This document shows positions 20,084-39,603 of a stretch of 64,000 bases of DNA, one piece after another; position 1 is the first letter of the stretch; every line of letters begins with the position of its first letter. Under the pieces are notes generated by a model. That model had not been told where the DNA came from and did not search any database. It saw only the letters and a list, made by a program, of their open reading frames with translations. The stretch spans positions 22,078 to 86,077 of the forward strand of contig NZ_JAEUMN010000162.1 in NCBI RefSeq assembly GCF_016793225.1, written 5' to 3'. The position numbers and the translations under genes are program-made. The DNA is from Phenylobacterium sp. GTDB taxonomy: Bacteria; Pseudomonadota; Alphaproteobacteria; Caulobacterales; Caulobacteraceae.

Positions 20084-20348
20084 TCCCGCGGCCCCGTGAC
20101 GTCGGGCCCGGTCTGCGGCCCTGTCCCCCATGTTCGGGGTAGCCGCGTCCGTGGATGCAGGCAAGTTCTCTCGCCTCCTGCGGGATGGCCCCGTCGCCGC
20201 AACCACGAGCAAACCGCGACGCGACACGACTCGTCGGCTCGGCTAGAGCGGGCAGGGCGGAGCGGGTGGGTTGCGTCCGGTTCGGTGCGGGTCGCGCCCA
20301 CCCGAGCTTCGACGAGCACGGCGCGGGCCGCCGGAGAGGAGAACGACG

Positions 20349-20891: not shown

Positions 20892-20907
20892 TGTGTGAAA
20901 TGTCGGC

Positions 20908-20944
20908 TCGGCGACCTAGGGGCGTCCCGGCGCGGCGCCGTCTT
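20908..20944 (+). promoter_or_regulatory. Candidate FecI-type promoter upstream of fecR
   Basis: A 37-base block beginning TCGGCGACCT and ending GCGGCGCCGTCT lies between the sigma gene and fecR. The same block with identical spacing (29 of 37 bases) recurs at 24367-24403. A paired box of this kind with a CGTC-type end, in front of fecR, fits a promoter for the adjacent ECF sigma factor. This is inferred from repetition and position. Confidence 0.5.
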
Positions 20945-20985
20945 ACCAGCGGTTCGGCGCAATGGGCGTCGTTCGAGGCGGGCCT

Positions 20986-21942
20986 ATGACCAGCTTGGCG
21001 ATGGACAGGGACGGGCAGGCGGCGCAAGCCAGCGCCTGGCTCGTGCGCCTTTCCGCCGGCGACGGCGGAGAGTCCGAGGCGCTGGCGTTCGACGCCTGGC
21101 TGGACGAGACGCCCGGCAACCGCGAGGCCTACGCCGCCGCGCTGGCGACCTGGCACGAGTATTCCGCAGGCGCGGACGCGGTGGGCGTGGAGATCGCCCG
21201 GCCGGCGCGCCGGCCCGTTTCGCTGTCCCGCCGGTGGATGGCGGGCGCCGGCGGCCTCGCCATCGCGGCGACGGTGGCCCTGGCGGTCCTGCCGGCTCTC
21301 ACGACCACGACAGCGACCTATGCGACCACCAAGGGCGAGCACCGGCAGGTGGCCCTGGCGGACGGCTCGAAGATCGACCTGAACGCCGAGACGCGCCTCT
21401 CGGTGAAGTACGGCCTGCTCCGGCGCGAGGTCACCCTGACCGACGGCGAAGCGCTCTTCGACGTGGCGCACGACACGCGCCGGCCGTTCACGGTGGCGGC
21501 CGCGGGGCGGATGGTCCGGGTGCTGGGGACCCAGTTCGATGTCCGCAGCCGCTCGGGCGACGTCGTCGTGACAGTGGCCCGCGGACGGGTCGAGGTGCGG
21601 CCCAACGCCACGTCCACCCAGGCGTTCACGCTCGTGCGGGGCCAGCGGCTCGAGGTCGAACGCACCGGCCGGGCGCAGCTGCACACGGTCGACCCGCAGG
21701 AAGCCTACAGCTGGCGCGCCGGCCGCCTGGTGTACCGCAACCAGCCGCTCGCCGAGGTGGTGGCCGACCTGAACCGGCAGTTCGTCCAGCAGGTCGAGAT
21801 CGGCGATCCGGCCCTGGCGCAGACTCCGATCACCGGCGTGATCGTCCTCGACGATCCGCAGTCCGTGGTGGCGCGTCTGAGCTTGATGCTCCCCATAAGA
21901 TCGGTACCTTCCGACCGGGGGCTGCTTCTGCTTCGGAAGTAA
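20986..21942 (+). CDS. FecR-family anti-sigma/signalling protein
   Basis: A 318-residue inner-membrane regulator. The N-terminal DUF4880-like part (AQASAWLVRLSAGDGGESEALAFDAWLDE) binds the sigma factor in the cytosol. One helix at about residues 85-107 crosses the membrane, and the FecR periplasmic domain follows (YATTKGEHRQVALADGSKIDLN, LTDGEALFDVAHDT, FDVRSRSGDVVVTVARGRV). It would relay receptor occupancy to the ECF sigma factor. The start ATG follows GAGGCGGG. Confidence 0.93.
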   Translation: MTSLAMDRDGQAAQASAWLVRLSAGDGGESEALAFDAWLDETPGNREAYAAALATWHEYSAGADAVGVEIARPARRPVSLSRRWMAGAGGLAIAATVALAVLPALTTTTATYATTKGEHRQVALADGSKIDLNAETRLSVKYGLLRREVTLTDGEALFDVAHDTRRPFTVAAAGRMVRVLGTQFDVRSRSGDVVVTVARGRVEVRPNATSTQAFTLVRGQRLEVERTGRAQLHTVDPQEAYSWRAGRLVYRNQPLAEVVADLNRQFVQQVEIGDPALAQTPITGVIVLDDPQSVVARLSLMLPIRSVPSDRGLLLLRK

Positions 21943-21974
21943 GGCCGAAGGACAAGTCGGAGCTAACCATCCGC

Positions 21975-24356
21975 GTGCGTCGGGACCTGGTGGCCGCCAC
22001 CACGTGCGTCGTGTTGGCGATGAGCGGCGGCGACCCCGCCCAGGCCGCAGGCGCGCGGGTCCAGTTCAAGGTCGCGCCCAAGTCCTACTCCGAAGCGCTG
22101 CTGGACATGGCCCAGCAGGCGAACGTCACCCTGATCGGCGCGGGCGCCTGCATCGGACAGTCGCCGGGCGTGTCCGGGGTGCTGACGATCGAACAGGCGC
22201 TCGATCAGCTCCTGGCGGGGGCGCCCTGCACGGCGCGGCTGGTGGCCGCCGGCACTGTGGAGGTGGCGCCGATCCTGCGGCCCGAGGCCCCGCGCCCCTC
22301 ACCGCCCGTGACCGTCTCGGAACTGCTCGTGACCGCGACGAAGCGGGTGCGCGACCCCCGGCAGATCGCCGTGGCGGTGACGGCGATCCCGCGCGGGCAG
22401 CTGCTGTCCACCGGCGCCACCGACGCCGGCGAAGCGGCCGGACAGCTCGCGGGCGTCCTCGCCACCAACCTCGGCCCGGGCCGCAACAAGCTGCTGCTGC
22501 GCGGGCTCTCGGACGGGGCCTACACGGGTCGCGCCCGCTCGATCGTGGCGACGTTCCTCGACGACATACCGGTCAACTACAACGCCCCCGATCCCGACCT
22601 GCGGCTGACGGATGTCGAGCGCGTGGAGGTCGCAAGGGGCCCCCAGGGCGCGCTCTACGGCGCCGGGTCGCTCTCGGGCCTCTACCGGATCGTCGCGCGC
22701 AAGCCCGACCTCGAAGCCTTCCACGCCGAGCTGCGCGGGACCGCGGCGATCACCGAGAGCGGGGATCCGAGCTACGCCGTCGAGGGCTACGCCAACTACC
22801 CGCTGACGCTGTTCGGCCAGACCATCGGCCTGCGCCTCGCCGCCTACCAGGAGGAACAGGGCGGCTACCTCGAGAACGTGCGGCTGATGCGCAGCAACGT
22901 CGACCGCACCGTGCGGCGGGGCGCGCGGCTCATCATGCTCTACGAGCCGACGGACGACCTGACGTTCACCGTCACGTTGGCGGGCCAGCACCTGCGTTCG
23001 GACGACACCCACTACACGACGCCCGGCATGAAGCTGACGCGGGACACGCGTTCGCCCGAGCCGCACGTCAACGACATCGAGCTCGCCACCGCCACGGTGC
23101 GGCGCTCGTGGGGGTGGGGCGAACTGACCTCGGCGACGGGCGTGGTCCGTCACCGCTACGGCAGCCTGTTCGACTCGACGGCCAGCAAGGACCTCTACAC
23201 ACGCTTCGCCGAGACCGCGGCCTATGCCGAGCGCACGCGCACCACCATGCTGGTGGAGGATCTGGTGCTCACCTCGCGCGGCGCCGGCCGCCTCGAGTGG
23301 CTCGCGGGCGTCTACGGCTCGTACACGCGCGTGCATACGCCCACCGAGTTCCTGGCGCAGCTCTCGTTCTCGCCGGTGCTGATCCCGGTCTACGGCGACG
23401 ACCGGCGCGATCGGATCCGCGAGCTGGCCGCCTATGGCGAGGTTTCCTACGAGGTGCTGCCCGGCTGGACCGTTGCGGTCGGCGCGCGCGCCTTCCAGAT
23501 CGAGACCCGGACCCGCTCGTCGGTGGTGTCCGAACGCTTCCAGCCCCGCAGTTTTGACCGCGAGGTCAAGTTCAGCGGCGTCTCGCCCAAGCTCTCGCTC
23601 CAGAAGACCTTCGGCGGGGGAAACCTGGCCTATGTGGTGATGTCCGAAGGCTACCGGTCCGGCGGCATAAACTCGGGCGGCGCCGTGCCTCTGCTGCCCG
23701 AACGCGAGGTCTTCGGCCCGGACCGGCTCACCAACTTCGAGGCCGGCCTGAAGCTCGAGGCGTTCCGCCGGCGTCTGGGCGTGAACACGGCCCTCTTCTA
23801 CGACCTTTGGGACGACATCCAGACGGACCAGTTCCGGGACTCGGGAATTCCCTTCACCACCAATGCGGGCGACGCCCAGGTCATCGGCGTCGAGACCGAG
23901 GTCACCTGGCGCACCGACTTCGGTCTCACGGCGCAGCTGAACGCCCGGATCAGCCGCACCCGGACGGGCCGGCCGAACCCCGCCTTCATCCGCACGCCCC
24001 TCGCCGACGGCCTGCCGGGGGCGCCCCCCATCTCCGCTGGGGCCGTGCTCAGCTACGACACCGCGATCGGCGACGACTGGACGCTGCGGCTGATCGGCCA
24101 GGCCAGCTACGTCGGCCGCTCCCGGGTCAGCTTCGAGGCGGCGCAGCCGCGCACCCGCGAGTACGGCCGCGCGAAGCTGTCTGCGGAACTGACCAACGGC
24201 GCCTGGGGCGCGCAGCTCTTCGTGATCAATCCGCTGAACGACTACAGCGACACCTTCGCCTTCGGGAACCCGTTCACACAGAACCAGGCCAAGATCCGTC
24301 AGGTGACGCCGCAGCGGCCGCGGACCATCGGCATCACCGTGTCGCGCGGGCTGTAG
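21975..24356 (+). CDS. TonB-dependent receptor with STN signalling domain (FecA-like)
   Basis: A 793-residue outer-membrane receptor. GTG 21975 gives a signal peptide (to AQAAGA), and the sequence VQFKVAPKSYSEALLDMAQQ that follows is the STN domain contacting FecR. A TonB-box-like VSELLVTATKRV and a plug domain (TDVERVEVARGPQGALYGAGSLSGLYRIVARKP, by position 22612-22710) precede a 22-strand barrel ending in a phenylalanine-poor but typical GITVSRGL. It starts 32 bases after fecR. Cargo unknown, possibly a ferric chelate. Confidence 0.92.
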   Translation: MRRDLVAATTCVVLAMSGGDPAQAAGARVQFKVAPKSYSEALLDMAQQANVTLIGAGACIGQSPGVSGVLTIEQALDQLLAGAPCTARLVAAGTVEVAPILRPEAPRPSPPVTVSELLVTATKRVRDPRQIAVAVTAIPRGQLLSTGATDAGEAAGQLAGVLATNLGPGRNKLLLRGLSDGAYTGRARSIVATFLDDIPVNYNAPDPDLRLTDVERVEVARGPQGALYGAGSLSGLYRIVARKPDLEAFHAELRGTAAITESGDPSYAVEGYANYPLTLFGQTIGLRLAAYQEEQGGYLENVRLMRSNVDRTVRRGARLIMLYEPTDDLTFTVTLAGQHLRSDDTHYTTPGMKLTRDTRSPEPHVNDIELATATVRRSWGWGELTSATGVVRHRYGSLFDSTASKDLYTRFAETAAYAERTRTTMLVEDLVLTSRGAGRLEWLAGVYGSYTRVHTPTEFLAQLSFSPVLIPVYGDDRRDRIRELAAYGEVSYEVLPGWTVAVGARAFQIETRTRSSVVSERFQPRSFDREVKFSGVSPKLSLQKTFGGGNLAYVVMSEGYRSGGINSGGAVPLLPEREVFGPDRLTNFEAGLKLEAFRRRLGVNTALFYDLWDDIQTDQFRDSGIPFTTNAGDAQVIGVETEVTWRTDFGLTAQLNARISRTRTGRPNPAFIRTPLADGLPGAPPISAGAVLSYDTAIGDDWTLRLIGQASYVGRSRVSFEAAQPRTREYGRAKLSAELTNGAWGAQLFVINPLNDYSDTFAFGNPFTQNQAKIRQVTPQRPRTIGITVSRGL

Positions 24357-24789: not shown

Positions 24790-25698
24790 CTACGGCGGCG
24801 GCCAGGCGCGCGCCAGGAAGGCGGCGATGCGGGCGACCGCCTCGTCCGCCTCGGGCAGGGCGCCGCCGAACATCTGCCAGACGTGGATCATGTCGGGCCA
24901 GACCTCGAGCTCGACCGAGACGCCCGCGGCCTCGGCGCGCTGCGCCAGGGTGACGGCGTCGTCGAGCAGGACCTCGTCCGACCCGGCCTGGACGAGGAGC
25001 CGCGGCAGGCCCGAAAGGTCGGCGGCCAGGGGCGAGGCCAGCGGGGCGGCCGGATCCTGGCCCTGGAGGTACTGGTCGGCCATCTCCAGCAGGATACGGC
25101 GCGTGAGCAGCGGATCGGCGCCGGCCCGGGTCTCGTACGAGCCGCCGGTGCAGGCGAGGTCGACCCACGGGCTCAGCGCGACCGCGGCGGCCGGCGCGGG
25201 CAGGCCGGCGTCCCGGATGGCGATCAGCGCCGCGATGGCCAGCCCGCCGCCGGCCGACTCCCCGCCGATGGCGATGCGCGCGGGCTCCGCTCCGTCCGCC
25301 AGCAGCGCGCGATACGCCGCCACCGCGTCCTCCACGGCGGCCGGGAACGGGTGGTCGGGCGCGAGGCGGTAGTCCAGGCTCACCACACGGGCGGCGGTGG
25401 CGAGGGCGAGCGCGGTGGTCAGGCCGCGGCTGCCGGCCGGGTCGCCCATCACGTAGCCGCCGCCGTGCAGGTGCAGGAAGACGTTCGGACCGCCGCCCGG
25501 CTCCCGTTCGAGGGTCTCGACCGGCCGTCCGGCCAGCGCGCCGGCGGCGACCCGTAGCCCCGGCGGCGGCGGCGGCTGCCCGGCGGCGAAGACCGCCGCC
25601 TGCGCGCGGCGGTGTGCGATGGAGGCGTCGGGGCCGCCCAGCAGCGACAGGAGCATCGCGCGCACGCCATCGATGGGGCGCTCGGGGCGCGCGCTCAT
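24790..25698 (-). CDS. Alpha/beta hydrolase, hormone-sensitive-lipase family
   Basis: A 302-residue esterase. HLHGGGYVMGD is the oxyanion-hole HGGG motif, GGESAGGGLA contains the nucleophilic serine, and the histidine in WPDMIHVWQMF is catalytic. Its ATG overlaps the stop of the Baeyer-Villiger monooxygenase gene by four bases (ATGA), so the two are translationally coupled. The pair suggests that the ester or lactone made by the monooxygenase is opened by this enzyme. Confidence 0.92.
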   Translation of the reverse strand: MSARPERPIDGVRAMLLSLLGGPDASIAHRRAQAAVFAAGQPPPPPGLRVAAGALAGRPVETLEREPGGGPNVFLHLHGGGYVMGDPAGSRGLTTALALATAARVVSLDYRLAPDHPFPAAVEDAVAAYRALLADGAEPARIAIGGESAGGGLAIAALIAIRDAGLPAPAAAVALSPWVDLACTGGSYETRAGADPLLTRRILLEMADQYLQGQDPAAPLASPLAADLSGLPRLLVQAGSDEVLLDDAVTLAQRAEAAGVSVELEVWPDMIHVWQMFGGALPEADEAVARIAAFLARAWPPP

Positions 25699-27311
25699 CC
25701 GTTCGGCCCTGCGCCCAGCCGGAAGCCCTCGTACCCGCGCTGCGCCACCTCCAGGCAGCGCTCGCGGTAGGCCGCGAACCCGCCCACGTACACGCCGAAG
25801 CGGCGCGGCTTTCCGGGGATGTTGGCGCCGAAGTACCAGGACCCGTCCGCCTTCGGGTACAGCGTATGGGCGACCGCGGCGTCGGATTCGGCCACCCAGG
25901 CCGCCTCGGCGGTCTCGGTGGCCTCGACGGTGGCGACGCCGCGCGTGCGCATGTGCTCCAGGCAGTCGGCGATCCAGTCCACATGCTGCTCGACGGCCGT
26001 CGGCATGTTCGCCAGGACCGACGGGCTGAGGGGGCCCGTGACGGTGAACAGGTTGGGGAAGCCCGCGATGCCGAGGCCGAGGTAGCTCTTCGGCCCTTCG
26101 GCCCATCGGTCGGCCAGCCGGACGCCGCCGCGGCCCCTCACGTCGATGGCGAGCAGGGCCCCGGTGATGGCGTCGAAGCCCGTGGCGACGACCAGGTCGT
26201 CCAGGTCGTACGCCGCGTCCGCCGTGCGCAGGACGTGGCCCGCAACCTCGCGGATCGGCGCGCTGCGCACGTCGACCAGCGTCACGTTGGGACGGTTGAA
26301 GGTCTCGTAGTAGTCGTCGTCCAGCGGCGGGCGTTTCACGCCGATCGGATGGTCGTTGGGGATCAGCCGCTGCGCGGTCGCCGGGTCGCGCACCGTGCGC
26401 AGGATGTGGGCGCGCACGAAGTCCTGCGCCGTGCGGTTGGCGCGCTCGTCGCTGAAGAGGTCGGTGAAGGCGCTGAAGAACCGCATGCCGCCCTGGTCCC
26501 AGAAGGCCTGGTAGGCCGCTTCCCGCGCCGCGTCGCTGACCTCCAGCGCCGACTGCTCCGGCGGGTCGAACGGCACCGCCCCGCCCGAGGCCAGGCAGCG
26601 GGCGCGGATCTCGGCGTAGTTGGCCTTCACCCAGGCGTCGAAGTCCGGGTCGGTCGGGCGGTTCCAGGCCGGCAGCACCCAGTTGGCCGTGCGCTGGAAC
26701 ACCGTCAGATGCTCGGCCTGCTCGGCGATGCGCGGGATCGCCTGCACCGCAGAGGCGCCGGTGCCGATCACGCCGACGCGGCGGCCTCGGAAGTCGACGG
26801 GGTCATGCGGCCACTGGGCGGTGTGGAACAGCCGCCCCTGGAAGTCGCGAAGGCCCGGGATGTCCGGCCAGTTCACCTGCGACAGGCAGCCCATCGCCGT
26901 CACCAGGGACCGCGTGGTCGTCTCGAACCCGTCCGTCGTGCGCAGCCGCCAACCGCCCAGGGACTCGTCGAAATGCGCCGCCGCCACCCTGGCGCCGAAG
27001 CGATAGCGCCGGCGCAGATCGAAGCGGTCGGCGACGTGCTTCAGGTAGCTGAGGATCTCGGGCTGCTCGGAGTAGCGCAGGCTCCAGTTCCAGTCCTGCT
27101 GCAGGCCGTCGTCGAAGGCGTAGCTGTAGTAGTAGCTCTCGCAGTCGCACCGCGCGCCCGGATAGCGGTTCCAGTACCAGACGCCCCCGACGTCGTCGGC
27201 CTGTTCCAGGCCCAGGACGTCGAGGCCCTGCTCGCCGAAGCGATGGACGGCGTAGAGCCCCCCGAAGCCCGCGCCGATGACGACCACGTCGTACTGCGGT
27301 TCCGCGCCCAT
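25695..27311 (-). CDS. Flavin-containing Baeyer-Villiger-type monooxygenase
   Basis: A 538-residue FAD- and NADPH-dependent enzyme that inserts oxygen next to a ketone. GAGFGGLYAVH binds FAD, FQGRLFHTAQWP is the BVMO fingerprint FxGxxxHxxxWP, and GVIGTGASAVQAIP binds NADPH. Length and order match cyclohexanone/steroid monooxygenases. I take ATG 27311; an ATG at 27335 overlaps the operator and is less likely. It is the first cistron of a two-gene operon with the hydrolase and is preceded by the operator at 27335-27346. Confidence 0.94.
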   Translation of the reverse strand: MGAEPQYDVVVIGAGFGGLYAVHRFGEQGLDVLGLEQADDVGGVWYWNRYPGARCDCESYYYSYAFDDGLQQDWNWSLRYSEQPEILSYLKHVADRFDLRRRYRFGARVAAAHFDESLGGWRLRTTDGFETTTRSLVTAMGCLSQVNWPDIPGLRDFQGRLFHTAQWPHDPVDFRGRRVGVIGTGASAVQAIPRIAEQAEHLTVFQRTANWVLPAWNRPTDPDFDAWVKANYAEIRARCLASGGAVPFDPPEQSALEVSDAAREAAYQAFWDQGGMRFFSAFTDLFSDERANRTAQDFVRAHILRTVRDPATAQRLIPNDHPIGVKRPPLDDDYYETFNRPNVTLVDVRSAPIREVAGHVLRTADAAYDLDDLVVATGFDAITGALLAIDVRGRGGVRLADRWAEGPKSYLGLGIAGFPNLFTVTGPLSPSVLANMPTAVEQHVDWIADCLEHMRTRGVATVEATETAEAAWVAESDAAVAHTLYPKADGSWYFGANIPGKPRRFGVYVGGFAAYRERCLEVAQRGYEGFRLGAGPNG

Positions 27312-27334
27312 GGGCCCTCGCTCGTTCGATAGCA

Positions 27335-27346
27335 TAACGGACGTTA
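27335..27346. promoter_or_regulatory. AACG-NN-CGTT operator, BVMO/SDR divergent promoter
   Basis: TAACGGACGTTA is a 5+2+5 inverted repeat 24 bases upstream of the BVMO start and 70 bases before the divergent SDR start. Read leftwards it is followed by TATGCT (27336-27331), a likely -10 box. The same palindrome occurs at 28986 (one mismatch), 29021 and 33132. Confidence 0.6.
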
Positions 27347-27416
27347 CGCAGACGCTATCGGCTTCTTCGGGCCTGTGTAAAGGTGCGGGCCGACACGAGG
27401 GGGTCGGAGCGGGAGG

Positions 27417-28220
27417 ATGTCCGTGGGGCGGATGGCAGGCAAGGTGGCGCTGGTGACCGGCGCGGCGGGCGGCATCGGCCGGGCCTGCGCGCTGCTCCTG
27501 GCCCGCGAGGGCGCCCGGGTCTTCGCCGGGGATGTGGACATGGAGGGGCTCGCGGGCACCGCCGCGCTGGCCCGGGACGGCGACGCCGTCGAGACCGTGC
27601 GGCTGGACGTCACCTCCGAGGACGATTGGGCCGAGGTCGTGGGCCGGATCAGCGCCGCCGCGGGGGCGCTGCACGTGCTGGTCAACAACGCGGGCCTCTG
27701 CATCAGCGCCCAGCTGCTCGAGACGACGAACGATGTCTGGCGCCGGCAGATGTCGGTGAACCTGGACGGGGTGTTCTTCGGCACGCGGGCGGCCATGCCG
27801 CTCCTGGCGCGGGCCGGCGGCGCGGCGGTCGTCAACGTCTCGTCCGTGGCCGGCCTGGACGGCCTGCCGGGGCTCTCGGCCTACTGCGCCACCAAGGGGG
27901 GCGTGCGGCTGTTCACCAAGGCCGTGGCGCTCGAATGCGCGCAGGCGCGCAACGGCGTGCGGGTGAACTCGGTCCACCCCGGGGCCATCGAGACGCCGAT
28001 CTGGGTGAAGATGCAGAACGACGGTCGGCTGGACCCCGGCTCGAATTCGGCCGAGGCGCTGATGGACGCCACACGCCAGGCGGCCGCGGAGGCCACGCCG
28101 CTCGGCTTCGCCGGTCTGCCCGAGGACATCGCCGAGGGCGTGCTCTACCTGTGCTCGGACGCCGCCCGTTTCGTCACGGGCGCCGAACTGGTGATCGACG
28201 GCGGCGTACACGCGGGCTGA
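27417..28220 (+). CDS. Short-chain dehydrogenase/reductase
   Basis: A 267-residue classical SDR. TGAAGGIG near residue 15 binds NAD(P)H, NNAGL is the structural motif, and the catalytic Ser-Tyr-Lys triad is in VSSVAG and YCATKGG (YxxxK). DVD after the second strand favours NAD(H). Being divergent from the BVMO operon across the shared operator, it could oxidise an alcohol to the ketone used by the monooxygenase. This pathway role is inferred. Confidence 0.93.
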   Translation: MSVGRMAGKVALVTGAAGGIGRACALLLAREGARVFAGDVDMEGLAGTAALARDGDAVETVRLDVTSEDDWAEVVGRISAAAGALHVLVNNAGLCISAQLLETTNDVWRRQMSVNLDGVFFGTRAAMPLLARAGGAAVVNVSSVAGLDGLPGLSAYCATKGGVRLFTKAVALECAQARNGVRVNSVHPGAIETPIWVKMQNDGRLDPGSNSAEALMDATRQAAAEATPLGFAGLPEDIAEGVLYLCSDAARFVTGAELVIDGGVHAG

Positions 28221-28299
28221 CGGCGCGGCGACCGTATTCGGCGCGGCGGCGCTGTGCTAACGCGCCAGTCGCGCAGGTTGCGCGAAGCGTGAGGACGTC

Positions 28300-28932
28300 A
28301 TGGCCCGGCAGGCTGACCACGAGCAGAGGAGGCGCCAGTTCGCCGCGGCGGCCCTGGCGGTGATCTCGCGCGACGGCCTGGAAGGCCTGACCATGCGCAA
28401 CGTGGCCAAGGAGGCCGGCTTCACGACCGGCGCGCTGACCCACTACTTCCAGTCCAAGGACGAGGTGCTGATCGCGGTGTCCGAACACGGCGCCGAGATC
28501 GTGCGGCCGATGATGGACGAGGCGGCCACCGGCGTGTCAGCGCGCGAAGCGCTTCGCGACCTGCTGCACACGATCCTGCCCGCCTCGGCCGCCATGAAGG
28601 CCCAGTGGCGGTTCTGGGTCGCGTTCTGGGAGCGCGGCGCCCACAGCCCCCAGGTGCAGCGCGTGATGCGCGAGCGGTACTTCGAGTACATGAACCGCGT
28701 GGCCAGCGTGATCCGCCGGGCCCAGGAGCAGGGCGAGGCGCCCCGCGACCTGGACGTCGACCAGGTGGCGCGGGAGATCGTGGCGACGATCGACGGGCTT
28801 GCGGTCCAGGTGCTGCTCGGCGCGGCGAAGTTCACCGGCGCGGCCCAGCGCCAGTTCGTGGACACGATGCTCGACGCGCGGCTCGGCGCCGTCGCGGCCT
28901 CGCCGCCGAAGGCGTCCCGCGCCGCCGGCTGA
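28300..28932 (+). CDS. TetR-family regulator, BetI-like
   Basis: A 210-residue repressor-type protein. The helix-turn-helix at about residues 25-55 contains TMRNVAKEAGFTTGALTHYF followed by SKDEVLIAV, close to BetI-like TetR domains. The C-terminal domain would bind an effector. It lies 79 bases after the SDR and 178 before the VOC gene, inside the block carrying the four shared palindromes, so it is the best candidate for the regulator that binds them. Confidence 0.9.
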   Translation: MARQADHEQRRRQFAAAALAVISRDGLEGLTMRNVAKEAGFTTGALTHYFQSKDEVLIAVSEHGAEIVRPMMDEAATGVSAREALRDLLHTILPASAAMKAQWRFWVAFWERGAHSPQVQRVMRERYFEYMNRVASVIRRAQEQGEAPRDLDVDQVAREIVATIDGLAVQVLLGAAKFTGAAQRQFVDTMLDARLGAVAASPPKASRAAG

Positions 28933-28985
28933 GCGACGCCTGACGACCGGTCGGTCGGACGCGCCTCCGGCTTCATGCCATTGCA

Positions 28986-28997
28986 GAACAAGCGTTA
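28986..28997. promoter_or_regulatory. AACG-NN-CGTT operator, imperfect copy
   Basis: GAACAAGCGTTA has one mismatch in the left arm against the AACG-NN-CGTT pattern and lies in the first direct repeat upstream of the VOC gene. A flanking CAAGCG...CGCTTG dyad (28989-29009) also surrounds it. Confidence 0.45.
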
Positions 28998-29020
28998 TAC
29001 GATCGCTTGCCCATTTTGCA

Positions 29021-29032
29021 GAACGAGCGTTA
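29021..29032. promoter_or_regulatory. AACG-NN-CGTT operator, VOC/receptor promoter
   Basis: GAACGAGCGTTA contains a perfect 4+2+4 palindrome. It overlaps TATGCT (29031-29036), which is 18 bases after TTGCCC (29007-29012), giving a promoter that a bound repressor would block. It precedes the VOC gene start by about 80 bases. Confidence 0.58.
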
Positions 29033-29110
29033 TGCTCGGCTCCAGAAGACGAGCGCCGGGGCGATCGCGCAGAGCGTGAGGCCGCCGCGCCACATGGGGA
29101 GTGTGCGGTC

Positions 29111-29632
29111 ATGTCCGACGCGGAATGGGCGCTGTCGCGCCTCTATCACACCGTCATCAACTGCCGCGATCTGGACGAGTCCGTCGCGTTCTACCGAAAG
29201 CTCGGCTTCGAGGTCCTCAACGACCGCCGCAACGTCGACTGGCCCGACTTCGTGGCCGGGATCTTCGGCCTGTCGAAGGCGAAGGGGCGGGGCGTCCTGA
29301 TGGTCCTGCCCTCGGACCCGGACGGTCCCATGATGGACCTCATCGAATGGATGGAGCCCAAGGCCGCCTTCCCGGATCCTGCGGCGCGCAAGACCCAGGT
29401 GCCGCGGATCATCGCCTTCAGGACCCAGAACGTGCATGCCGCCTACGAGGCGCTCAGCAAGTCGGGCGTGGTGTTCACCCAGGCCCCGCACGTGCCGGAC
29501 GCGGCGCTCGGGATCGTGGGCACGGCCTGCTGCTACGATCCGAACGGCAACATCATCGAGATGATCGAACTCCAGCCGGGCGTCCGGCACTCACGAGCCA
29601 ACGAGGCGCTGGGCAACAAGGCGTCGAACTGA
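29111..29632 (+). CDS. VOC/glyoxalase-like metalloprotein
   Basis: A 173-residue vicinal-oxygen-chelate protein with two beta-alpha-beta-beta-beta units. LYHTVINCRDLDESVAFYRKL opens the fold and supplies the first metal histidine, and YDPNGNIIEMIEL supplies the last metal glutamate. The family includes dioxygenases, isomerases and lactoylglutathione lyases. It is the first gene of the rightward cluster with the TonB receptor; the reaction is unknown. GGGGAG precedes the ATG. Confidence 0.85.
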   Translation: MSDAEWALSRLYHTVINCRDLDESVAFYRKLGFEVLNDRRNVDWPDFVAGIFGLSKAKGRGVLMVLPSDPDGPMMDLIEWMEPKAAFPDPAARKTQVPRIIAFRTQNVHAAYEALSKSGVVFTQAPHVPDAALGIVGTACCYDPNGNIIEMIELQPGVRHSRANEALGNKASN

Positions 29633-29689
29633 ACTTCGGCCCGCGCGGGGCCGCAGATGACCAACGATAAATCGGGGAGGGATCGGCAG

Positions 29690-31981
29690 ATGGCCAGGAT
29701 GTTCGGGCGCCAGGCGCGCCTTCTGGGCAGCGTGGCGGCGCTTGCGCTCGCGGGTGGAGCGGCGCAGGCCGCGGACCAGGCGGAAACCGCGATCAGCGAA
29801 GTGGTGGTCACGGCGCAGTTCCGCGAGGAGAACGTCCAGAAGGTCCCGATCCCGATCACCGCCGTAGGCGGCGAGGACCTCGAGAAGCAGGGGGTCGTCG
29901 GCTTCAAGGAACTGGGCATGCGGGTGCCGTCGCTGCGCTTCGGCGCGGGCGTCACGGGCGGTGAGAACGTGATCACCATGCGGGGCCTGGGCAGCCAGAA
30001 CACCACCCCCGGCGGCGACTCGCCCGTCGCGTACAACATCGACGGCGTCTACGTGCAGCGCACCACCTCGATCGATCCCGAATTCTACGACATCGCCCGG
30101 GTCGAGGTGCTGCGGGGGCCCCAGGGCACCCTCTACGGCCGCAACTCGGTGGGCGGCTCGATCAATGTGATCACCAACAAGCCCACCGGCCAGTTCGGCG
30201 CCGGCTTCGACGCCATGGTCGGGAACTACGACGCACGCACCTTCCGCGGCTTCTTGAACGTGCCGCTGGTGACCGAGGGCGACATGCAGATCGCCGCGCG
30301 CCTGACGGCGGTGTCGGCCGAGCACGATCCCTACACCAAGAACCTCTCGGCCAAGCCGACCGCCACGAACGAGCTGGACCGGCTCGACTACCAGATGATC
30401 CGGGCCCAGATCGCCATCGACTTCACCCCGCAGGCGCGCCTCCTTCTCGCGGCGCATCGCACGTGGGGCGAAGGCGTGGCCGCCACCGCGACGGCCTGGT
30501 GGCAGACGCCGGCGCGCTACACGCGGCCGCCGCTCGGGATTCCCGCCGGATCGGCGTGCGACTTCAGCACCGCGGCCAGGTTCGATCCCCGCCGGGTCTG
30601 CCACGACTACCCCGACGTCGGCAGCAACGACACCGAGCTCTACTCCGGCACGTTCGACGTCGAGCTTCCGTTTGCGAACCTGACGACCGTGACGGCCTAC
30701 GGGACCAGCCACGTCGACCAGATCAGCGACGGCGACGGCTCGGACCTCCCGATCTCGGTCGGCGAGGCGTGGCGCCTGGATGCGAAGCAGTTCTCCCAGG
30801 AGGTCCGCTTCGCGTCCAACCAGGAAAGCGCCCTGACCTGGGTGGTCGGCGGCATCTACTTCTACGGCAAGAACTTCCAGGACTTCGTCTACCGCGACCT
30901 GGGCTTCAACGACTTCGGCCCGACCGCGCCCTTCAACCGCTTCAACTTTCTGAGCGAGGGCACGAGCAAGACGCGCTCCTGGGCCGCGTTCGGGCAGTTC
31001 GACTATGACTTCGGCAAGAACGGCGGGCCGCCGGTGATCCTGACCGCGGGTCTGCGCTACACCCACGACAAGAAGTCCGGCTTCAACCAGCTCGACTACC
31101 AGCTGCCGATCGCCTGCGGCGGCAGCTGCGGGGTCTTCTCGGGCCCCTTCAGCAAGACGTGGAACCGCATCACCGGCAAGGTCGGCCTGAGCTACCAGGC
31201 CAGCGAGGACACCATGTTCTTCGTCTCGGTGGCGCGCGGCTATCTGGCCGGCGGCAACATCACCGGCCTGGGCAACATCTACGATCCGGAGACGCTGACG
31301 TCGTTCGACGCGGGCGTGAAGTCCCGCTTCCTCGACGACCGGGTGCAGCTGAACATCGCCGCCTACCATCAGCGCATCAAGAATCTGCAGGTGTTCATCC
31401 AGAGCGCCACGCAGTCGGGCATCAACAACGTCGACGGCGCCACCAACGTGAACGGCGTCGAGGCCGAGCTCACGGCCGTGCCCGTGGACAACCTGCGGCT
31501 CAACGCGACCGTCACGCTGACCGACGCGGAGTACGGCCGCTACATCACCCGCGCCGCCCGCTTCGGCGGACCGGGGCCGGGGTGCGATGCGGTGACCCTG
31601 CTCTGCAACTTCAAGGGCAACAACCTCAACCAGACGCCGGACTACACGGTGAACCTGGGCGCGGAGTACCGGTTCGAGACGGAGATGGGCGCGATCACGC
31701 CGCGGATCGACGTCTATTTCTCGGGTCGGGTGGACTTCCTGGCGGACAACTTCATCACCTCGCGCCAGAAGGCCTACCACACCACCAATGCGCGGGTGAC
31801 CTGGGAAAGCCCCGACAACCGCTACCGGGTCGAGGCGTTCGTCGCCAACATCGAGGACGACGACATCATCTCGAACGACGGCCTGCAGTCGATCTCGCTG
31901 GGCCAGCAGGCCCTGCAGCCCGACAACTTCGTCTACTATCCGCCCCGGACCTACGGGATCCGGATCGGCGCGAGCTTCTAG
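29690..31981 (+). CDS. TonB-dependent receptor
   Basis: A 763-residue outer-membrane receptor. A signal peptide ends AQAAD, the TonB box is ISEVVVTAQ, and the plug contains IARVEVLRGPQGTLYGRNSVGGSINVITNKP-type sequence near 30085-30185. The barrel ends with TYGIRIGASF, a typical terminal phenylalanine. I prefer ATG 29690, with GGGGAGG nine bases upstream, over 29657. No STN domain is present, so uptake but not signalling is likely. Its place in the catabolic cluster suggests it imports the substrate. Confidence 0.92.
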   Translation: MARMFGRQARLLGSVAALALAGGAAQAADQAETAISEVVVTAQFREENVQKVPIPITAVGGEDLEKQGVVGFKELGMRVPSLRFGAGVTGGENVITMRGLGSQNTTPGGDSPVAYNIDGVYVQRTTSIDPEFYDIARVEVLRGPQGTLYGRNSVGGSINVITNKPTGQFGAGFDAMVGNYDARTFRGFLNVPLVTEGDMQIAARLTAVSAEHDPYTKNLSAKPTATNELDRLDYQMIRAQIAIDFTPQARLLLAAHRTWGEGVAATATAWWQTPARYTRPPLGIPAGSACDFSTAARFDPRRVCHDYPDVGSNDTELYSGTFDVELPFANLTTVTAYGTSHVDQISDGDGSDLPISVGEAWRLDAKQFSQEVRFASNQESALTWVVGGIYFYGKNFQDFVYRDLGFNDFGPTAPFNRFNFLSEGTSKTRSWAAFGQFDYDFGKNGGPPVILTAGLRYTHDKKSGFNQLDYQLPIACGGSCGVFSGPFSKTWNRITGKVGLSYQASEDTMFFVSVARGYLAGGNITGLGNIYDPETLTSFDAGVKSRFLDDRVQLNIAAYHQRIKNLQVFIQSATQSGINNVDGATNVNGVEAELTAVPVDNLRLNATVTLTDAEYGRYITRAARFGGPGPGCDAVTLLCNFKGNNLNQTPDYTVNLGAEYRFETEMGAITPRIDVYFSGRVDFLADNFITSRQKAYHTTNARVTWESPDNRYRVEAFVANIEDDDIISNDGLQSISLGQQALQPDNFVYYPPRTYGIRIGASF

Positions 31982-32022
31982 GAGAGGGGGTCGGGCCCCT
32001 CGGGTCCGGCCCCGCGACGCCC

Positions 32023-33066
32023 ATGTCGATGGAGTGGCCCGTACGCGCCGACTGGCTGGCCCAGGTGCGAGAAGCGCCCCTGGAGCCCGGGCTGCCGATC
32101 ATCGACGCGCATCATCATCTCTGGAAGCTGCCGCACGACACCTATCTGCTCGACGAGTTCCTGGACGACGCAGACCCGCAGCGCGGCGGTCACAACGTGG
32201 TCGCCAGCGTCTTCGCCGAGTGCGCGGCCATGTACCGGCCGGACGGCCCTGCGCATCTTCGGTCGATCGGAGAGGTCGAGTTCGCCAACGGGGTGGGCGC
32301 GCAGGCCGCCAGCGGCGCCTTCGGCCCGGTCCTGGCCTGCGCCGCGATGTTCGGCTCGGCCGACCTCATGCTGGGCGAGCGCGTGGGCGAGGTGCTGGAC
32401 ATCCATCTGGCGCGGGCGCCCGAGCGCTACCGCGGGATCCGGCCTATCGTGTGCGCCGATCCCCATGGCGTGCTGGATCCGTGGCCCAGTTCGCCCTCGG
32501 ACATGATGGAGAGCGCCGCGTTCCGGGCGGGCGCGCGGGAGCTGCAGCGGCGCAACCTCTCGCTCGACATCTGGGTGTTTCACCACCAGCTGGACCAGGT
32601 GGCCGGCCTCGCGGCCGCCCTGCCGGGGCTGACCGTGATCCTGGATCACATCGGCACCCCGCTCGGCATGGGCTGGTACGCCGGGCGGCGCGAGGAGGTG
32701 TGGGCGCGATGGCGCGCGGGGATGGCCGCCGTGGCGGCCTGTCCGAACGTCCTGCTGAAGCTGGGCGGCCTGAACATGCACTTCAACGGCTTCGACTGGC
32801 ACACGCGGCCGAAGCCGCCGTCCTCCGACGAGCTCGCCGCCGCCAACGGGCCCTACTATGCGGCCGCCATCGAGCTTTTCGGGCCGGACCGCTGCATGTT
32901 CGAGAGCAACTTCCCGATGGACAAGCGGGCGTGCAGCTACGGGGTCCTGTGGAACGCGCACAAGAAGATGGCCGCCGGCTTCAGCGCCGACGAGAAGCGC
33001 CTGATGTTCCACGATGTCGCGGCGCGCGCCTACCGGATCGAAGGTCTCCCGGAGCCGGCGACATGA
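32023..33066 (+). CDS. Amidohydrolase-2 family metal-dependent hydrolase
   Basis: A 347-residue TIM-barrel enzyme. IIDAHHHLWKLP carries the metal-binding HxH, VILDHIGTP the third-strand histidine, and FESNFPMDK the late aspartate/serine region. Relatives open lactones or decarboxylate ring-cleavage products. It follows the receptor by 41 bases. ATG codons occur at 32023 and 32029; either could be used. Substrate unknown. Confidence 0.88.
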   Translation: MSMEWPVRADWLAQVREAPLEPGLPIIDAHHHLWKLPHDTYLLDEFLDDADPQRGGHNVVASVFAECAAMYRPDGPAHLRSIGEVEFANGVGAQAASGAFGPVLACAAMFGSADLMLGERVGEVLDIHLARAPERYRGIRPIVCADPHGVLDPWPSSPSDMMESAAFRAGARELQRRNLSLDIWVFHHQLDQVAGLAAALPGLTVILDHIGTPLGMGWYAGRREEVWARWRAGMAAVAACPNVLLKLGGLNMHFNGFDWHTRPKPPSSDELAAANGPYYAAAIELFGPDRCMFESNFPMDKRACSYGVLWNAHKKMAAGFSADEKRLMFHDVAARAYRIEGLPEPAT

Positions 33067-33131
33067 CCTGACCACGCGGCATCACCTGACCGCGCCGGCG
33101 CGATTGACTCGGCTCGGAATGCCCGATTACG

Positions 33132-33149
33132 TAACGGTCGTTATATAAT
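33132..33149 (+). promoter_or_regulatory. AACG-NN-CGTT operator and -10 box of the flavin monooxygenase gene
   Basis: TAACGGTCGTTA (33132-33143) is the best palindrome of the set and is immediately followed by TATAAT (33144-33149). A bound repressor would cover the core promoter. Two ACCTGACC direct repeats lie upstream at 33066-33073 and 33084-33091. Confidence 0.62.
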
Positions 33150-33168
33150 GAACGGAAGGACGCCCAGA

Positions 33169-34359
33169 GTGAAGTTCGACATCTTCTGTGAGATCCAGCG
33201 GGCCTTCCCCTGGGAGGGCGGGCAGAACGAGGCCAGCCTGTTCCAGGAGATCCTGGAGCAGGCGCGCGCGGCGGACGCGGCGGGCTTCACCACCTGGTGG
33301 CAGGTCGAGCACCACGGCGCCCCCGAGTTCAGCTACTCGGCTGCTCCCGAGGTCGTCCTGACGGCGATCGCCATGTCGACGCGGCGGCTGCGGGTCGGGC
33401 ACGCGGGCGTCCTTGCCCCCTTCGCCATCAACTCGCCGCTGCGCGTCGCCGAGCGCGGCGCCACGCTGGACGTGCTGTCGGGCGGACGCTTCGACATGGG
33501 CCTCGCCAAGTCGGGCGGGAAGGAGTGGGAGACGTTCGGCGTCGATCCGGAAAAGGCGCGCGACCAGACGCGCGACGCCATGCACATCCTGCCCCGCATC
33601 TGGACCGAGCCCGAGTTCTCGTGGGACGGGCCGGACTACAAGGTCCCGCCGCGCGAGATCGTGCCGAAGCCGGTGCAGTCGCCGCACCCGCCGCTGTGGC
33701 AGACCTGCGGGTCGCCGGAGAGCTTCTACATGGCCGGCGAAATGGGCGTCGGCGCGCTGGGCACCACGCTGCTGAGCCCCGTGAAGTTCCTGGGCGAGAT
33801 GCTGCGCGAGCACGACCGCGGGCTGGCGGCGTGCAAGACCCCGGCCGGGAAGTTCGTCAACGGCGAGAAGGGCTGCTTCACCTTCGTCCACATCGCCGAG
33901 ACGCGGGCGCAGGCCATCGCCAACGGCGCCGCCTGGTCGGCCCTCTGGTACGTCAACGCCGCGCCGCGGGTGTTCAAGGTGCCGCGCCGGGTCTGGTACG
34001 ACGTGATCAAGGCGGGTCTCCACCCGAACTCCGCGCGCGACACCGCCGCCCTCGCCAAGCTCGATCCGAACGAGACGGTGATCCACGACGACGACCCGCC
34101 GGTGGTGGTGCTGCTCAAGCGGATGGCCCAGGGCGAGGACATCAGCCACGAGGAGGCGCACGAGGTGCTGGAGCCCCTCGACTGCGTGGTCATCGGCGAT
34201 CCCGACCACTGCGCCGAGAAGCTGAAGGGCTACGAGGCCATCGGGGCGGACCGGATGATGTGCATGATGCAGTACGGCTCGATCCCGCACGCGGCGGTGC
34301 TGAAGAGCATCGAGCTGGCCGGCCGCCTGCTGTTGCCCGCCTTCGCCCGCGCAGCCTGA
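33169..34359 (+). CDS. Luciferase-like (LLM class) flavin-dependent monooxygenase
   Basis: A 396-residue FMN-dependent oxygenase of the bacterial-luciferase fold. FDIFCEIQ opens the first strand, EHH follows in QVEHHGAPEF, and ERGATLDVLSGGRFDMGLAKSG is the conserved central block. GTG 33169 is chosen because GGAAGGA lies eight bases upstream and ATG 33148 overlaps the TATAAT box. A reduced flavin must come from a reductase elsewhere. With the BVMO it gives the cluster two different flavin oxygenases. Confidence 0.88.
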   Translation: MKFDIFCEIQRAFPWEGGQNEASLFQEILEQARAADAAGFTTWWQVEHHGAPEFSYSAAPEVVLTAIAMSTRRLRVGHAGVLAPFAINSPLRVAERGATLDVLSGGRFDMGLAKSGGKEWETFGVDPEKARDQTRDAMHILPRIWTEPEFSWDGPDYKVPPREIVPKPVQSPHPPLWQTCGSPESFYMAGEMGVGALGTTLLSPVKFLGEMLREHDRGLAACKTPAGKFVNGEKGCFTFVHIAETRAQAIANGAAWSALWYVNAAPRVFKVPRRVWYDVIKAGLHPNSARDTAALAKLDPNETVIHDDDPPVVVLLKRMAQGEDISHEEAHEVLEPLDCVVIGDPDHCAEKLKGYEAIGADRMMCMMQYGSIPHAAVLKSIELAGRLLLPAFARAA

Positions 34360-34374
34360 GGCGCGGGCCCGCCG

Positions 34375-36015
34375 TCAGTTGGCGCCTTCGAGCAGGCGGC
34401 GGGCGATGACCTGCGCCTGGATCTCGCCGGCGCCCTCGAAGATGTTCAGGATCCGGGCGTCGGCCAGCACGCGGCTCACCTGGCTCTCGAGCGCGAAGCC
34501 GTTGCCGCCGTGGATCTGCACGGCGTTGTCGGCCGCCGCCCAGGCGACCCGCGCGGCGACCAGCTTGGCCATGCCGGCCTCGAGGTCGCAGCGCCGGCCG
34601 GCGTCCTTCGACCGCGCCGCGAACCACGTCAGCTGGCGCGCGCCCAGGAGCTCGGCGGCCATCATCGCCAGCTTGTTGGCCACGCGGGGGAATTCGGCGA
34701 TCGGCTGGCCGAACTGCTTGCGCGTCAGGGCGTAGTCGAGGGCCAGGTCGAGGGCGTTCTGGCCGACCCCGATGGCGCGCGCCGCGGTCTGGATCCGGGC
34801 GCTCTCGAAGGTCGCCATGAGCTGGGCGAAGCCCTGGCCCTCCTGGCCGCCCAGGAGGTTCTCGTGCGGCACCTCGAAACCGTCGAAGCCGATCTCGTAC
34901 TCCTTCATCCCGCGGTAGCCGATGACCCCGATCTCGCCGCCGCTCATCCCGGGGGCCGGGAACGGGTTGCCGGGTTCGCCCCGCGGCTTCTCGGCGAGCA
35001 GCATCGACAGGCCGCGGTGGTCCTTCTTGCTCGCGTCGGTGCGCACGAGGAGCGTCATCAGGTCGGCGCGCGCGGCGTGGGTGATCCAGGTCTTGGCGCC
35101 GTAGATCCGCCAGCCCTTGTCCCACCGCAGGCCGCGGGTCTTGAGGCTGCCCAGGTCGGACCCCGTGTCCGGCTCGGTGAAGACCGCCGTGGGGATGATG
35201 GCGCCCGAGACGACCCCCGGCAGGAAGCGCGCCTTCTGCTCCTCGGTCCCGTGCGCCAGGAGCAGTTCGGTGGCGATCTCCGACCGGGTCGCCAGCGAGC
35301 CGGCGCCGATCCAGCCCCGGGAGAGGGATTCGGTGACGACGCACATGGCCACCTTGTCGAGCCCGGAACCGCCCCAGGCCTCGGGCGCGGTCAGGCCGAA
35401 CACCCCGAGGTCGCCCAGTTCCTGCAGCAGCTCCAGCGGGATCAGCTCGTCCTTCAGGTGCCACTGGTGGGCGAAGGGCGCGATCTTCTCCTGGGCGAAG
35501 GCGTGGAACTGGTCGCGCACCAAGAGCAGCGTCTCGTCCAGGCCGCCGTCCTCCAGGGCGGGACGCCCCCGCGCCTCGGCCAGAAGCTGTACGATGCGGC
35601 TCTTGGCGGCCTGCGAAACGCCGGGCCGAAGCCGCCCCAGGATATGTGTCAGGCGCTCGGCGGGGGCGAACACGTCCGCGGGGCGAAAGGTCTCGCCCTG
35701 GCTCATCGGGATGCCGCCCACGAGCTGGCTCAGATACTCGTGCGCGAGAAGCTGCGCGGGCAGCGCCTCGGCCTCGGTCATCCGCGGGCCCAGGTCGCGC
35801 GCCCAGGCCGCCACCTGCCGCAGGGTCTCGGCGTAGGACGCCGCCCACGCCAGCCCGTGCGCCACGTGCTGTTCGGCGTCCAGCAGCTGCCGGTCCAGGC
35901 GGTCGTCCCTGCGGACGCGGCTCGAGACGGCGGCGCCCACGGCGGACACCAGCGCGGCCGCCTCGTCGGAAGCCTGTTCCAGAAGTTCGGGAAGATTCGG
36001 CAGCGCTGGGCTCAT
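34375..36015 (-). CDS. mcd: Acyl-CoA dehydrogenase, probably (2S)-methylsuccinyl-CoA dehydrogenase
   Basis: A 546-residue flavoprotein, longer than ordinary acyl-CoA dehydrogenases because of an extra N-terminal helical domain (residues 1-160). EQHVAHGLAWAASYAETLRQ and LSQLVGGIPMSQGETFRP in that domain are what I know from methylsuccinyl-CoA dehydrogenases of the ethylmalonyl-CoA pathway. The catalytic body has the FTEPDTGSDLGSLKTRG FAD/substrate region and the C-terminal IHGGNGFALES. No other ethylmalonyl-CoA gene is in view, so the specific name is likely but not certain. Confidence 0.78.
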   Translation of the reverse strand: MSPALPNLPELLEQASDEAAALVSAVGAAVSSRVRRDDRLDRQLLDAEQHVAHGLAWAASYAETLRQVAAWARDLGPRMTEAEALPAQLLAHEYLSQLVGGIPMSQGETFRPADVFAPAERLTHILGRLRPGVSQAAKSRIVQLLAEARGRPALEDGGLDETLLLVRDQFHAFAQEKIAPFAHQWHLKDELIPLELLQELGDLGVFGLTAPEAWGGSGLDKVAMCVVTESLSRGWIGAGSLATRSEIATELLLAHGTEEQKARFLPGVVSGAIIPTAVFTEPDTGSDLGSLKTRGLRWDKGWRIYGAKTWITHAARADLMTLLVRTDASKKDHRGLSMLLAEKPRGEPGNPFPAPGMSGGEIGVIGYRGMKEYEIGFDGFEVPHENLLGGQEGQGFAQLMATFESARIQTAARAIGVGQNALDLALDYALTRKQFGQPIAEFPRVANKLAMMAAELLGARQLTWFAARSKDAGRRCDLEAGMAKLVAARVAWAAADNAVQIHGGNGFALESQVSRVLADARILNIFEGAGEIQAQVIARRLLEGAN

Positions 36016-38502: not shown

Positions 38503-39603
38503 ATGAAGTTCGCCACTGTCCTGCTCGCCGGCCTGTCAACGACCGCCCTCGGCGCGTGCGACCTGCGCATCACGCCGAAGCCCGAGACGGAGACGGCGGC
38601 CGCGGCCGCCCCCGCCGCCCCCGCGCCGGCTCCCGTCACTGAGGCGCCGCCCCCGCCGGCGCAGAGGTCCGCCTCACCCCTGGCGACGGCCATCGACGAG
38701 GCGGTGTTCAGCGCCCAGCTTTCGGATCCGAAGGGCAGGCGCGACCTGCTGGTCCGGGCCCAGGTGCTGCTCGACCGCGCCCATTTCTCGCCCGGCGTCA
38801 TCGACGGGCGCGACGGCGAGAACATGCGCAATGCGATCGCCGCCTACGAACGGGCGAACGACCTTCCCGAGGACGGCGTGCTCGATGTCCAGGTCTGGGA
38901 TCGGCTGACCGCCGATGCAGGCCCCGTGCTCACCGACTATGTGATCACGGACGCCGACGTGAAGGGGCCCTTCACCCCGCGCATCCCCGAGGACTACGCC
39001 GAGATGGCTAAGCTCGAGCGCCTGGCCTACTCGGGGCCTCTGGAGGCGCTGGCCGAGCGGTTCCACATGGACGCGGCGCTGCTCCAGGCGCTGAACCCCG
39101 ACGTCGACTTCCGCCGGGCGGATTCGACGATCGTGGTGGCCTACCCGGCGCGCGAGGCGCTGCCGGGCCGGGTGGCGACGATCGAGGTGGACAAGGCGCG
39201 CAAGCAGCTTCGCGCCTTCGACTCGGCCGGCAAGCTGCTCGCCGCCTACCCGGCGACGGTCGGCTCGAGCGAGCTCCCGACCCCGTCAGGCGAGCTGGTG
39301 GTGACCACCGTCGCGCCGGCGCCCACCTGGACCTACGACCCGACAAAGCTGAGCTTCGGGGACCGCAAGGCCGGCAAGCAGACCATCGCGGCGGGCCCCA
39401 ACAACCCGGTCGGCGCGGTCTGGATCGACCTGTCGAAGGATACCTACGGTATCCACGGAGCGCCCGATCCGCGCCTGGTCGGCAAGGTGGCGAGCCACGG
39501 CTGCGTTCGCCTGACCAACTGGGATGCGGTGCAGCTCTCCAAGGCGGTGACGCGGGGCACGCGCGTGGTCTTCACCGGGGAGGCGGCGCCGGCGAGCGCC
39601 TAG
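38503..39603 (+). CDS. L,D-transpeptidase lipoprotein
   Basis: A 366-residue cell-wall enzyme. It has a signal peptide with the LGAC lipobox at about residues 16-19, a proline/alanine-rich linker, a peptidoglycan-binding-like region ([20 protein letters not shown]-like at about 94-112) and a YkuD catalytic domain with [11 protein letters not shown], placing the active cysteine at residue 334. It forms 3-3 crosslinks or attaches proteins. ATG 38503 follows the ribosome site CGGAGG; the longer frame to 38242 overlaps the divergent gene. Confidence 0.9.

What the first reader, a model, noticed from the sequence alone, without database searches (positions are those of the whole stretch)
27335..33149. 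A four-site AACG-NN-CGTT operator set defines a new TetR-type catabolic regulon
TAACGGACGTTA (27335), GAACAAGCGTTA (28986, one mismatch), GAACGAGCGTTA (29021) and TAACGGTCGTTA (33132) all lie in promoter regions of one 8-kb block. Three of them touch a -10-like TATGCT or TATAAT in the same relative position. They cover the BVMO/hydrolase operon and divergent SDR, the VOC/TonB receptor/amidohydrolase operon, and the LLM monooxygenase. The TetR gene at 28300 sits in the middle. I noticed no further copy in the rest of the window.
Basis: partly seen in the sequence, partly recalled or inferred. Interest (0 to 1): 0.75.

Follow-up and report, generated by a model that had tools for sequence, protein, structure and literature searches.

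The report
TetR operators controlling ketone-degradation genes
Four short palindromes in this bacterium's DNA are very probably the binding sites of a local on/off switch protein for one set of uptake and breakdown genes; the kind of switch is ordinary, but I found no description of this regulator and its gene set.

Summary
A matrix trained on relatives ranks these four first in the window at 19-27 bits, the next at 9. The genus is Phenylobacterium. Across 80 loci with an LLM relative, 35 of 35 with this TetR nearby carry at least two sites; 39 of 45 without it carry none. Of the six exceptions, three have the TetR on another contig, two have none found and one is marginal. The window's genome has no second TetR of the clade. 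So 28300-28932 most likely encodes a local repressor of the BVMO/esterase, VOC/TonB/amidohydrolase and LLM units. Corrections: the SDR-side operator of relatives is lost here; TATAAT at 33144 is probably not the LLM -10, and LLM probably starts at GTG 33169; the core AACGNNCGTT is already published for Thermus PaaR; paralogous TetRs can have similar sites. New member of a known kind. Binding, ligand and substrate are untested.

The parts
24790..25698 (-). alpha/beta hydrolase, hormone-sensitive-lipase-like (probable esterase), second gene of the BVMO operon
   Evidence: Pfam Abhydrolase_3 2.7e-58; best NCBIfam rows are HSL subfamilies, below cut-off; start overlaps the BVMO stop
25695..27311 (-). 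type I Baeyer-Villiger monooxygenase
   Evidence: end-to-end match to steroid monooxygenase 4ap3 (605 bits) and phenylacetone monooxygenase 1w4x
27336..27345 (.). operator 1 (AACGGACGTT), one base shared with minus-strand TATGCT of the presumed BVMO promoter
   Evidence: 20.1 bits; kept in 6 of 6 aligned BVMO-SDR intergenic regions
27385..27394 (.). decayed SDR-proximal operator; the aligned place holds an operator in L075, L077, L079, L080 and L082
   Evidence: alignment A3
27417..28220 (+). short-chain dehydrogenase/reductase
   Evidence: Pfam adh_short_C2 1e-57
28300..28932 (+). TetR-family repressor, possibly co-transcribed with SDR
   Evidence: PF00440 and PF13977; clade alignment A2; model pLDDT 90; only clade member in the genome
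28987..28996 (.). operator 2 (AACAAGCGTT), upstream of the presumed VOC -35, 35 bp from operator 3; a -10-like TATACG adjoins it
   Evidence: 19.3 bits; column-conserved in 8 aligned promoters
29022..29031 (.). operator 3 (AACGAGCGTT), in the spacer of TTGCCC (29007)-N18-TATGCT (29031)
   Evidence: 20.0 bits; alignment A4
29111..29632 (+). VOC/glyoxalase-fold enzyme
   Evidence: PF00903 4.7e-13
29657..31981 (+). TonB-dependent outer-membrane receptor
   Evidence: PF00593, PF07715
32023..33066 (+). amidohydrolase 2 family hydrolase
   Evidence: PF04909 7.4e-32
33133..33142 (.). operator 4 (AACGGTCGTT) at the LLM promoter, probably over the transcription start
   Evidence: 27.0 bits; TTGAC at 33104 invariant in 8 aligned promoters
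33169..34359 (+). luciferase-like (LLM) flavin monooxygenase; start proposed at GTG 33169 instead of ATG 33148
   Evidence: PF00296 1.4e-48 (scanned from 33148); conserved TGAAGT at the start and Shine-Dalgarno-like GGAAGGA

Best explanation
The four palindromes are operators of the TetR-family repressor encoded at 28300-28932. A dimer binds about TAACRNNYGTTA and blocks RNA polymerase at the BVMO, VOC/TonB/amidohydrolase and LLM promoters. Binding of a substrate or intermediate to its BetI-type C-terminal domain would release it and switch on uptake (TonB receptor) and oxidation (LLM and BVMO, then esterase and SDR) of a ketone-bearing compound, by analogy steroid- or terpenoid-like. Shown by sequence: the sites, their promoter positions, conservation and co-occurrence with the TetR. 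Inferred: binding, repression, ligand, pathway.
For: A matrix from 37 sites of 12 relatives ranks the four sites 1-4 in the window. With no motif given, AAC-N4-GTT is the third-ranked dyad upstream of LLM: 29 of 35 loci with the TetR (0.82 expected) against 5 of 45 without (1.45 expected). 35 of 35 loci with the TetR have two or more sites of 12 bits or above. In 14 genomes 26 of 29 distinct ATAACRNNYGTTAY places lie in this cluster (pattern chosen after seeing cluster sites). The helix region EAGFTTGALTHYF is identical in all 13 aligned TetRs, the window's included. The genome has one clade TetR, 441 bits against 35 for the next. Operators lie in the -35/-10 spacer or at the presumed start site.
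Against: No binding or expression data. L085 and L086 have strong sites upstream of LLM but no clade TetR was found in their assemblies. Some genomes counted as lacking the TetR near LLM have one elsewhere: 14 of 20 searched have a match at 1e-12 or better, from 336 down to 56 bits. Of the 12 TetR loci fetched there only 3 have a site of 12 bits or above; L194 (254 bits), L196 (145) and L197 (127) have none in the stretch held. TAACRNNYGTTA is no commoner than its reversed control in those 20 genomes (23 against 127 places). Three matches lie outside the cluster in relatives. Paralogous TetRs can sit beside similar sites. Nine of the 35 loci are contigs also used for training.
Confidence: 0.88

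Rival explanations
1. The sites are true operators but the main protein reading them is another regulator of the genome, and the neighbouring TetR shares them or is a bystander.
For: TetRs at 30-37% identity have sites of 12 bits or above beside them in 10 of 16 loci; L085 and L086 have sites without a found TetR.
Against: No second TetR of the clade in this genome: next best 35 bits. Sites track this TetR in 35 of 35 loci and are absent in 39 of 45 without it nearby.
Confidence: 0.07
2. The palindromes are part of the promoters themselves (an unusual extended -10 or sigma recognition element), not repressor sites.
For: At three sites the outermost base of the palindrome is the first base of a TATGCT or TATACG hexamer.
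Against: The place relative to the presumed promoter varies: spacer at VOC, start site at LLM, upstream of -35 for operator 2. The extended element has no other exact copy in the genome. In relatives it occurs in pairs at varied spacing (14, about 33-36, 49-54 bp).
Confidence: 0.03
3. Chance cluster of a 10-mer.
For: 22 places genome-wide, and the one-mismatch motif is not enriched in the window.
Against: Matrix from relatives, dyads found without a motif, and four-of-four specificity.
Confidence: 0.02

Closest known systems
PaaR (TTHA0973) of Thermus thermophilus, TetR repressor of phenylacetate genes
   Same: TetR repressor of a catabolic gene set; published consensus CNAACGNNCGTTNG holds the same core (PMC6651687, abstract and passages seen).
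   Different: The outer C and G are found at 0 of 4 sites; no phenylacetate gene among the 9 proteins scanned.
pdc (progesterone degradation) cluster of Caenibius tardaugens and Novosphingobium aromaticivorans
   Same: BVMO, LLM and a TetR gene; there both monooxygenases turn progesterone into testosterone acetate (PMC12239570: abstract, section 7 and passages seen).
   Different: BVMO and LLM are each 30% identical to the pNL2 proteins; the TetR beside the pNL2 BVMO scores 6.6 bits with our clade profile and gives no blastp row; the two pNL2 stretches hold no site above 6.3 bits. I identified these pNL2 genes by position, not by old locus tag. No LuxR among the 9 window proteins scanned.
Steroid and phenylacetone monooxygenases (4ap3, 1w4x)
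   Same: BVMO aligns end to end at about 600 bits.
   Different: Substrate untested; sequence alone does not fix it.
BetI and other TetR_C_6 regulators; Rhodococcus 2nx4 and 2gfn
   Same: Same C-terminal domain and fold: TM 0.81 (2nx4_A) and 0.73 (2gfn_B) on the query.
   Different: Below the NCBIfam BetI cut-off (81.7 of 201.3 bits); 2nx4 and 2gfn are listed without a tested function.

Membership tests
TetR-family local repressor | N-terminal TetR helix-turn-helix domain | tested here: met
   PF00440 51.8 bits, cut-off 24
TetR-family local repressor | all-helical C-terminal ligand/dimer domain | tested here: met
   PF13977 91 bits, cut-off 27; nine-helix model, mean pLDDT 90
TetR-family local repressor | palindromic operators in promoters of neighbouring genes | tested here: met
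TetR-family local repressor | binds the operators and is released by a ligand | not testable with these tools
   needs EMSA and ligand screen
PaaR | operator CNAACGNNCGTTNG | tested here: not met
   core exact at three sites, outer C/G at 0 of 4 (sequence; consensus)
PaaR | controls phenylacetate (paa) genes | tested here: not met
   none of the 9 proteins scanned is a Paa protein; genes elsewhere in the genome not examined
pdc cluster | TetR orthologous to the one beside the pdc BVMO | tested here: not met
   6.6 bits with the clade profile, no blastp row
pdc cluster | BVMO and LLM that oxidise progesterone | not testable with these tools
   30% identity to each pNL2 protein; needs enzyme assay
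BetI (choline repressor) | NCBIfam equivalog score | tested here: not met
   TIGR03384 81.7 bits, cut-off 201.3

The most novel reading that the evidence does not exclude
TetR, TonB receptor, VOC enzyme, a hydrolase and LLM form the core of an undescribed catabolic system, shared by Alphaproteobacteria and Pseudomonadales and marked by its own operator (ATAACRNNYGTTAT, often in pairs), for taking up and oxidising a bulky ketone. In Phenylobacterium this operator captured a steroid-monooxygenase-like BVMO/esterase/SDR module that removes an acetyl side chain, a parallel invention to the pdc progesterone pathway.
Probability: 0.35. Interest if true: 0.55.

Novelty: new member of a known kind. 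Interest (0 to 1): 0.4.

Why it matters
The operator gives a handle on an unannotated pathway: regulator, promoters and candidate genes are a defined set, so one binding assay and one ligand screen could show what compound these bacteria take up and break down. The regulator/operator pair could also serve as a biosensor part. As a regulatory principle it is ordinary.

Tried and rejected
Substrate: Pfam, NCBIfam and PDB sequence searches give enzyme classes only; no row listed reached its NCBIfam cut-off (lists for SDR, TonB and LLM were cut at 25 rows). Plasmid searches found no relative of LLM, BVMO or TetR at 60% identity or more. Literature: searches gave the pdc paper as the one close parallel I recognised; one search listed 10 of 71 papers and I did not view the rest. 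PaaR, pdc and BetI membership were rejected as tabulated. The sigma-70 scan found no consensus promoter in 25000-36000, so promoter calls rest on the alignments. My first dyad run used 24 loci picked after seeing sites and is superseded on all 80. Out-of-cluster sites in three relatives gave no coherent extra target: L180 lies inside an ORF, L179 lies between ORFs about 250 bp from a small Fic-like ORF, L181 lies between the 3' ends of two ORFs (names are my reading of the sequence). In this genome, 15 of the 19 other AACGNNCGTT places were scored; the best score in their stretches is 9.6 bits.

Full report
Observation. The bare 10-mer has 3 matches in the window against 0.64 expected and 22 places in the 4.6-Mb genome, 3 of them here. 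With one mismatch it is not enriched in the window (11 against 16.7 expected). With flanks, KAACRNNCGTTAT, it occurs exactly four times in the genome, all here; the pattern was read from these sites, so this is partly circular.

Test on relatives. TetR relatives were sought in 249 genomes of the family; 28, the own genome included, had a match at E of 1e-20 or better. I fetched stretches for the 13 others with 45-81% identity. All 13 keep TetR, TonB, VOC and LLM genes (LLM cut by the contig end in L073) and all 13 have AACRNNYGTT palindromes near them. BVMO (68-87%) and SDR (65-81%) are within the stretch in 5 of 13 (L062, L063, L065, L066, L067), the hydrolase in 4, the amidohydrolase in 5. 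A matrix was made from 37 sites in 12 of these loci; L062, the nearest, was left out, and three sites inside ORFs were dropped beforehand. It scores the window: 33133 27.0, 27336 20.1, 29022 20.0, 28987 19.3 bits, then 9.2. Training sites were picked by the core pattern, so this tests rank and flanks. In 100 first-order Markov windows the top score was 17.1; the mean number at 12 bits or above was 0.17.

Spread and co-occurrence. A scan of named genomes with the LLM alignment kept the best 80 of 139 loci. A clade TetR (150 bits or more) is in 35 of 80 loci; all 35 have at least two sites of 12 bits or more, and 29 of 35 have one in the 250 bp upstream of LLM. Of the 45 without it, 39 have none; L085, L086, L096, L097 and L108 have one to three sites, on short contigs or with LLM near a contig end, and L138 has one marginal site of 12.0 bits about 10 kb from LLM. 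I searched whole genomes for 20 of the 45: 14 of 20 have a clade-like TetR somewhere, including those of L096, L097 and L108 (254, 262, 127 bits) and L091 (336 bits; its contig starts inside LLM); none was found for L085 and L086. So 'without' means not near LLM. Of 12 TetR loci fetched there, 3 have a site of 12 bits or above beside the gene (L192, L193, L195); L194 (254 bits) and the other eight have none in the stretch held. TAACRNNYGTTA in these 20 genomes is no commoner than its reversed control (23 against 127 places). Loci are related, so counts are not independent events. Without any motif given, three-base dyads upstream of LLM include AAC-N4-GTT in 29 of 35 (0.82 expected) against 5 of 45 (1.45 expected).

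Specificity. ATAACRNNYGTTAY in 14 genomes gives 20 forward and 21 reverse matches against 2 and 5 for the reversed control, at 29 distinct places, 26 of them in the cluster. The window's genome holds one TetR of the clade, 441 bits against 35 for the next. Against clean specificity: TetRs at 30-37% identity in related genomes have a site of 12 bits or more in the held stretch (about 1.5 kb each side) in 10 of 16 loci; larger stretches of eight such loci show the same or variant half-sites by the TetR gene in several.

Promoter anatomy. At VOC the alignment of eight promoters supports TTGCCC (29007)-N18-TATGCT (29031) with operator 3 in the spacer and operator 2 upstream of -35. At LLM, TTGAC (33104) is invariant in eight sequences and TTACGT follows after 17 bases, which puts the start inside operator 4; with TATAAT (33144) as -10 the start would fall in the Shine-Dalgarno-like GGAAGGA. 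The conserved TGAAGT points to GTG 33169 as the start codon. At BVMO/SDR operator 1 is kept in six of six sequences, while the SDR-side operator of the five relatives is replaced in the window. SDR, and TetR if co-transcribed, may be less tightly repressed here; inference.

Function. BVMO is closest in sequence to steroid and phenylacetone monooxygenases. The hydrolase is hormone-sensitive-lipase-like. Ketone to ester to alcohol to ketone is the general logic of such a trio (my knowledge). LLM is luciferase-like; the pdc LLM, 30% identical in its pNL2 homologue, is a Baeyer-Villiger enzyme for progesterone (PMC12239570: abstract, section 7, passages). In several more distant relatives a cyclase-family hydrolase lies between or near VOC and LLM (family of six; two tested, PF04199).

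Known systems. The core AACGNNCGTT is in print for PaaR (PMC6651687, abstract and passages; PMC9493321 seen as a listing only). A survey of proteobacterial regulons names the TetR-type FabR, FadP, LiuQ, PsrA and RutR in the passages I saw (PMC5343134), none with this gene set. In the open-licence library I found no paper with the longer motif or this gene set (listings); subscription papers are not covered. I file the regulator as a new member of the TetR local repressors.

Noticed in passing
window 20271-24356 +: ECF sigma factor, FecR-type protein and TonB receptor with a weak STN match: an ordinary signalling trio.
   Followed up: partly
window 18302-20227 -: Protein with a TPR-S sensor part and an adenylate/guanylate cyclase domain.
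   Followed up: no
window 39600-40691 -: Rieske oxygenase with a VanA-like C-terminal part, near the catabolic block.
   Followed up: no
L106, L107, L116, L118: In Pseudomonadales and a few others operators come as overlapping pairs 14 bp apart, in Caulobacteraceae often as pairs about 33-36 bp apart: possibly different modes of double-dimer binding.
   Followed up: partly
L179:5574: A perfect palindrome ATAACGTTCGTTAT outside the cluster in one relative, near a small Fic-like ORF; no evident link.
   Followed up: partly
L063:16481-19741, L064:16091-19483: A fused biotin carboxylase/carboxyltransferase of about 1100 residues follows LLM in L063, L064, L066 and L070 (L063 tested with Pfam), hinting at an acyl-CoA carboxylation step.
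   Followed up: partly
L182:9553 and 9567: A TetR with 35% identity has the same operator as an overlapping pair beside it, so the operator type reaches beyond the orthologous clade.
   Followed up: partly
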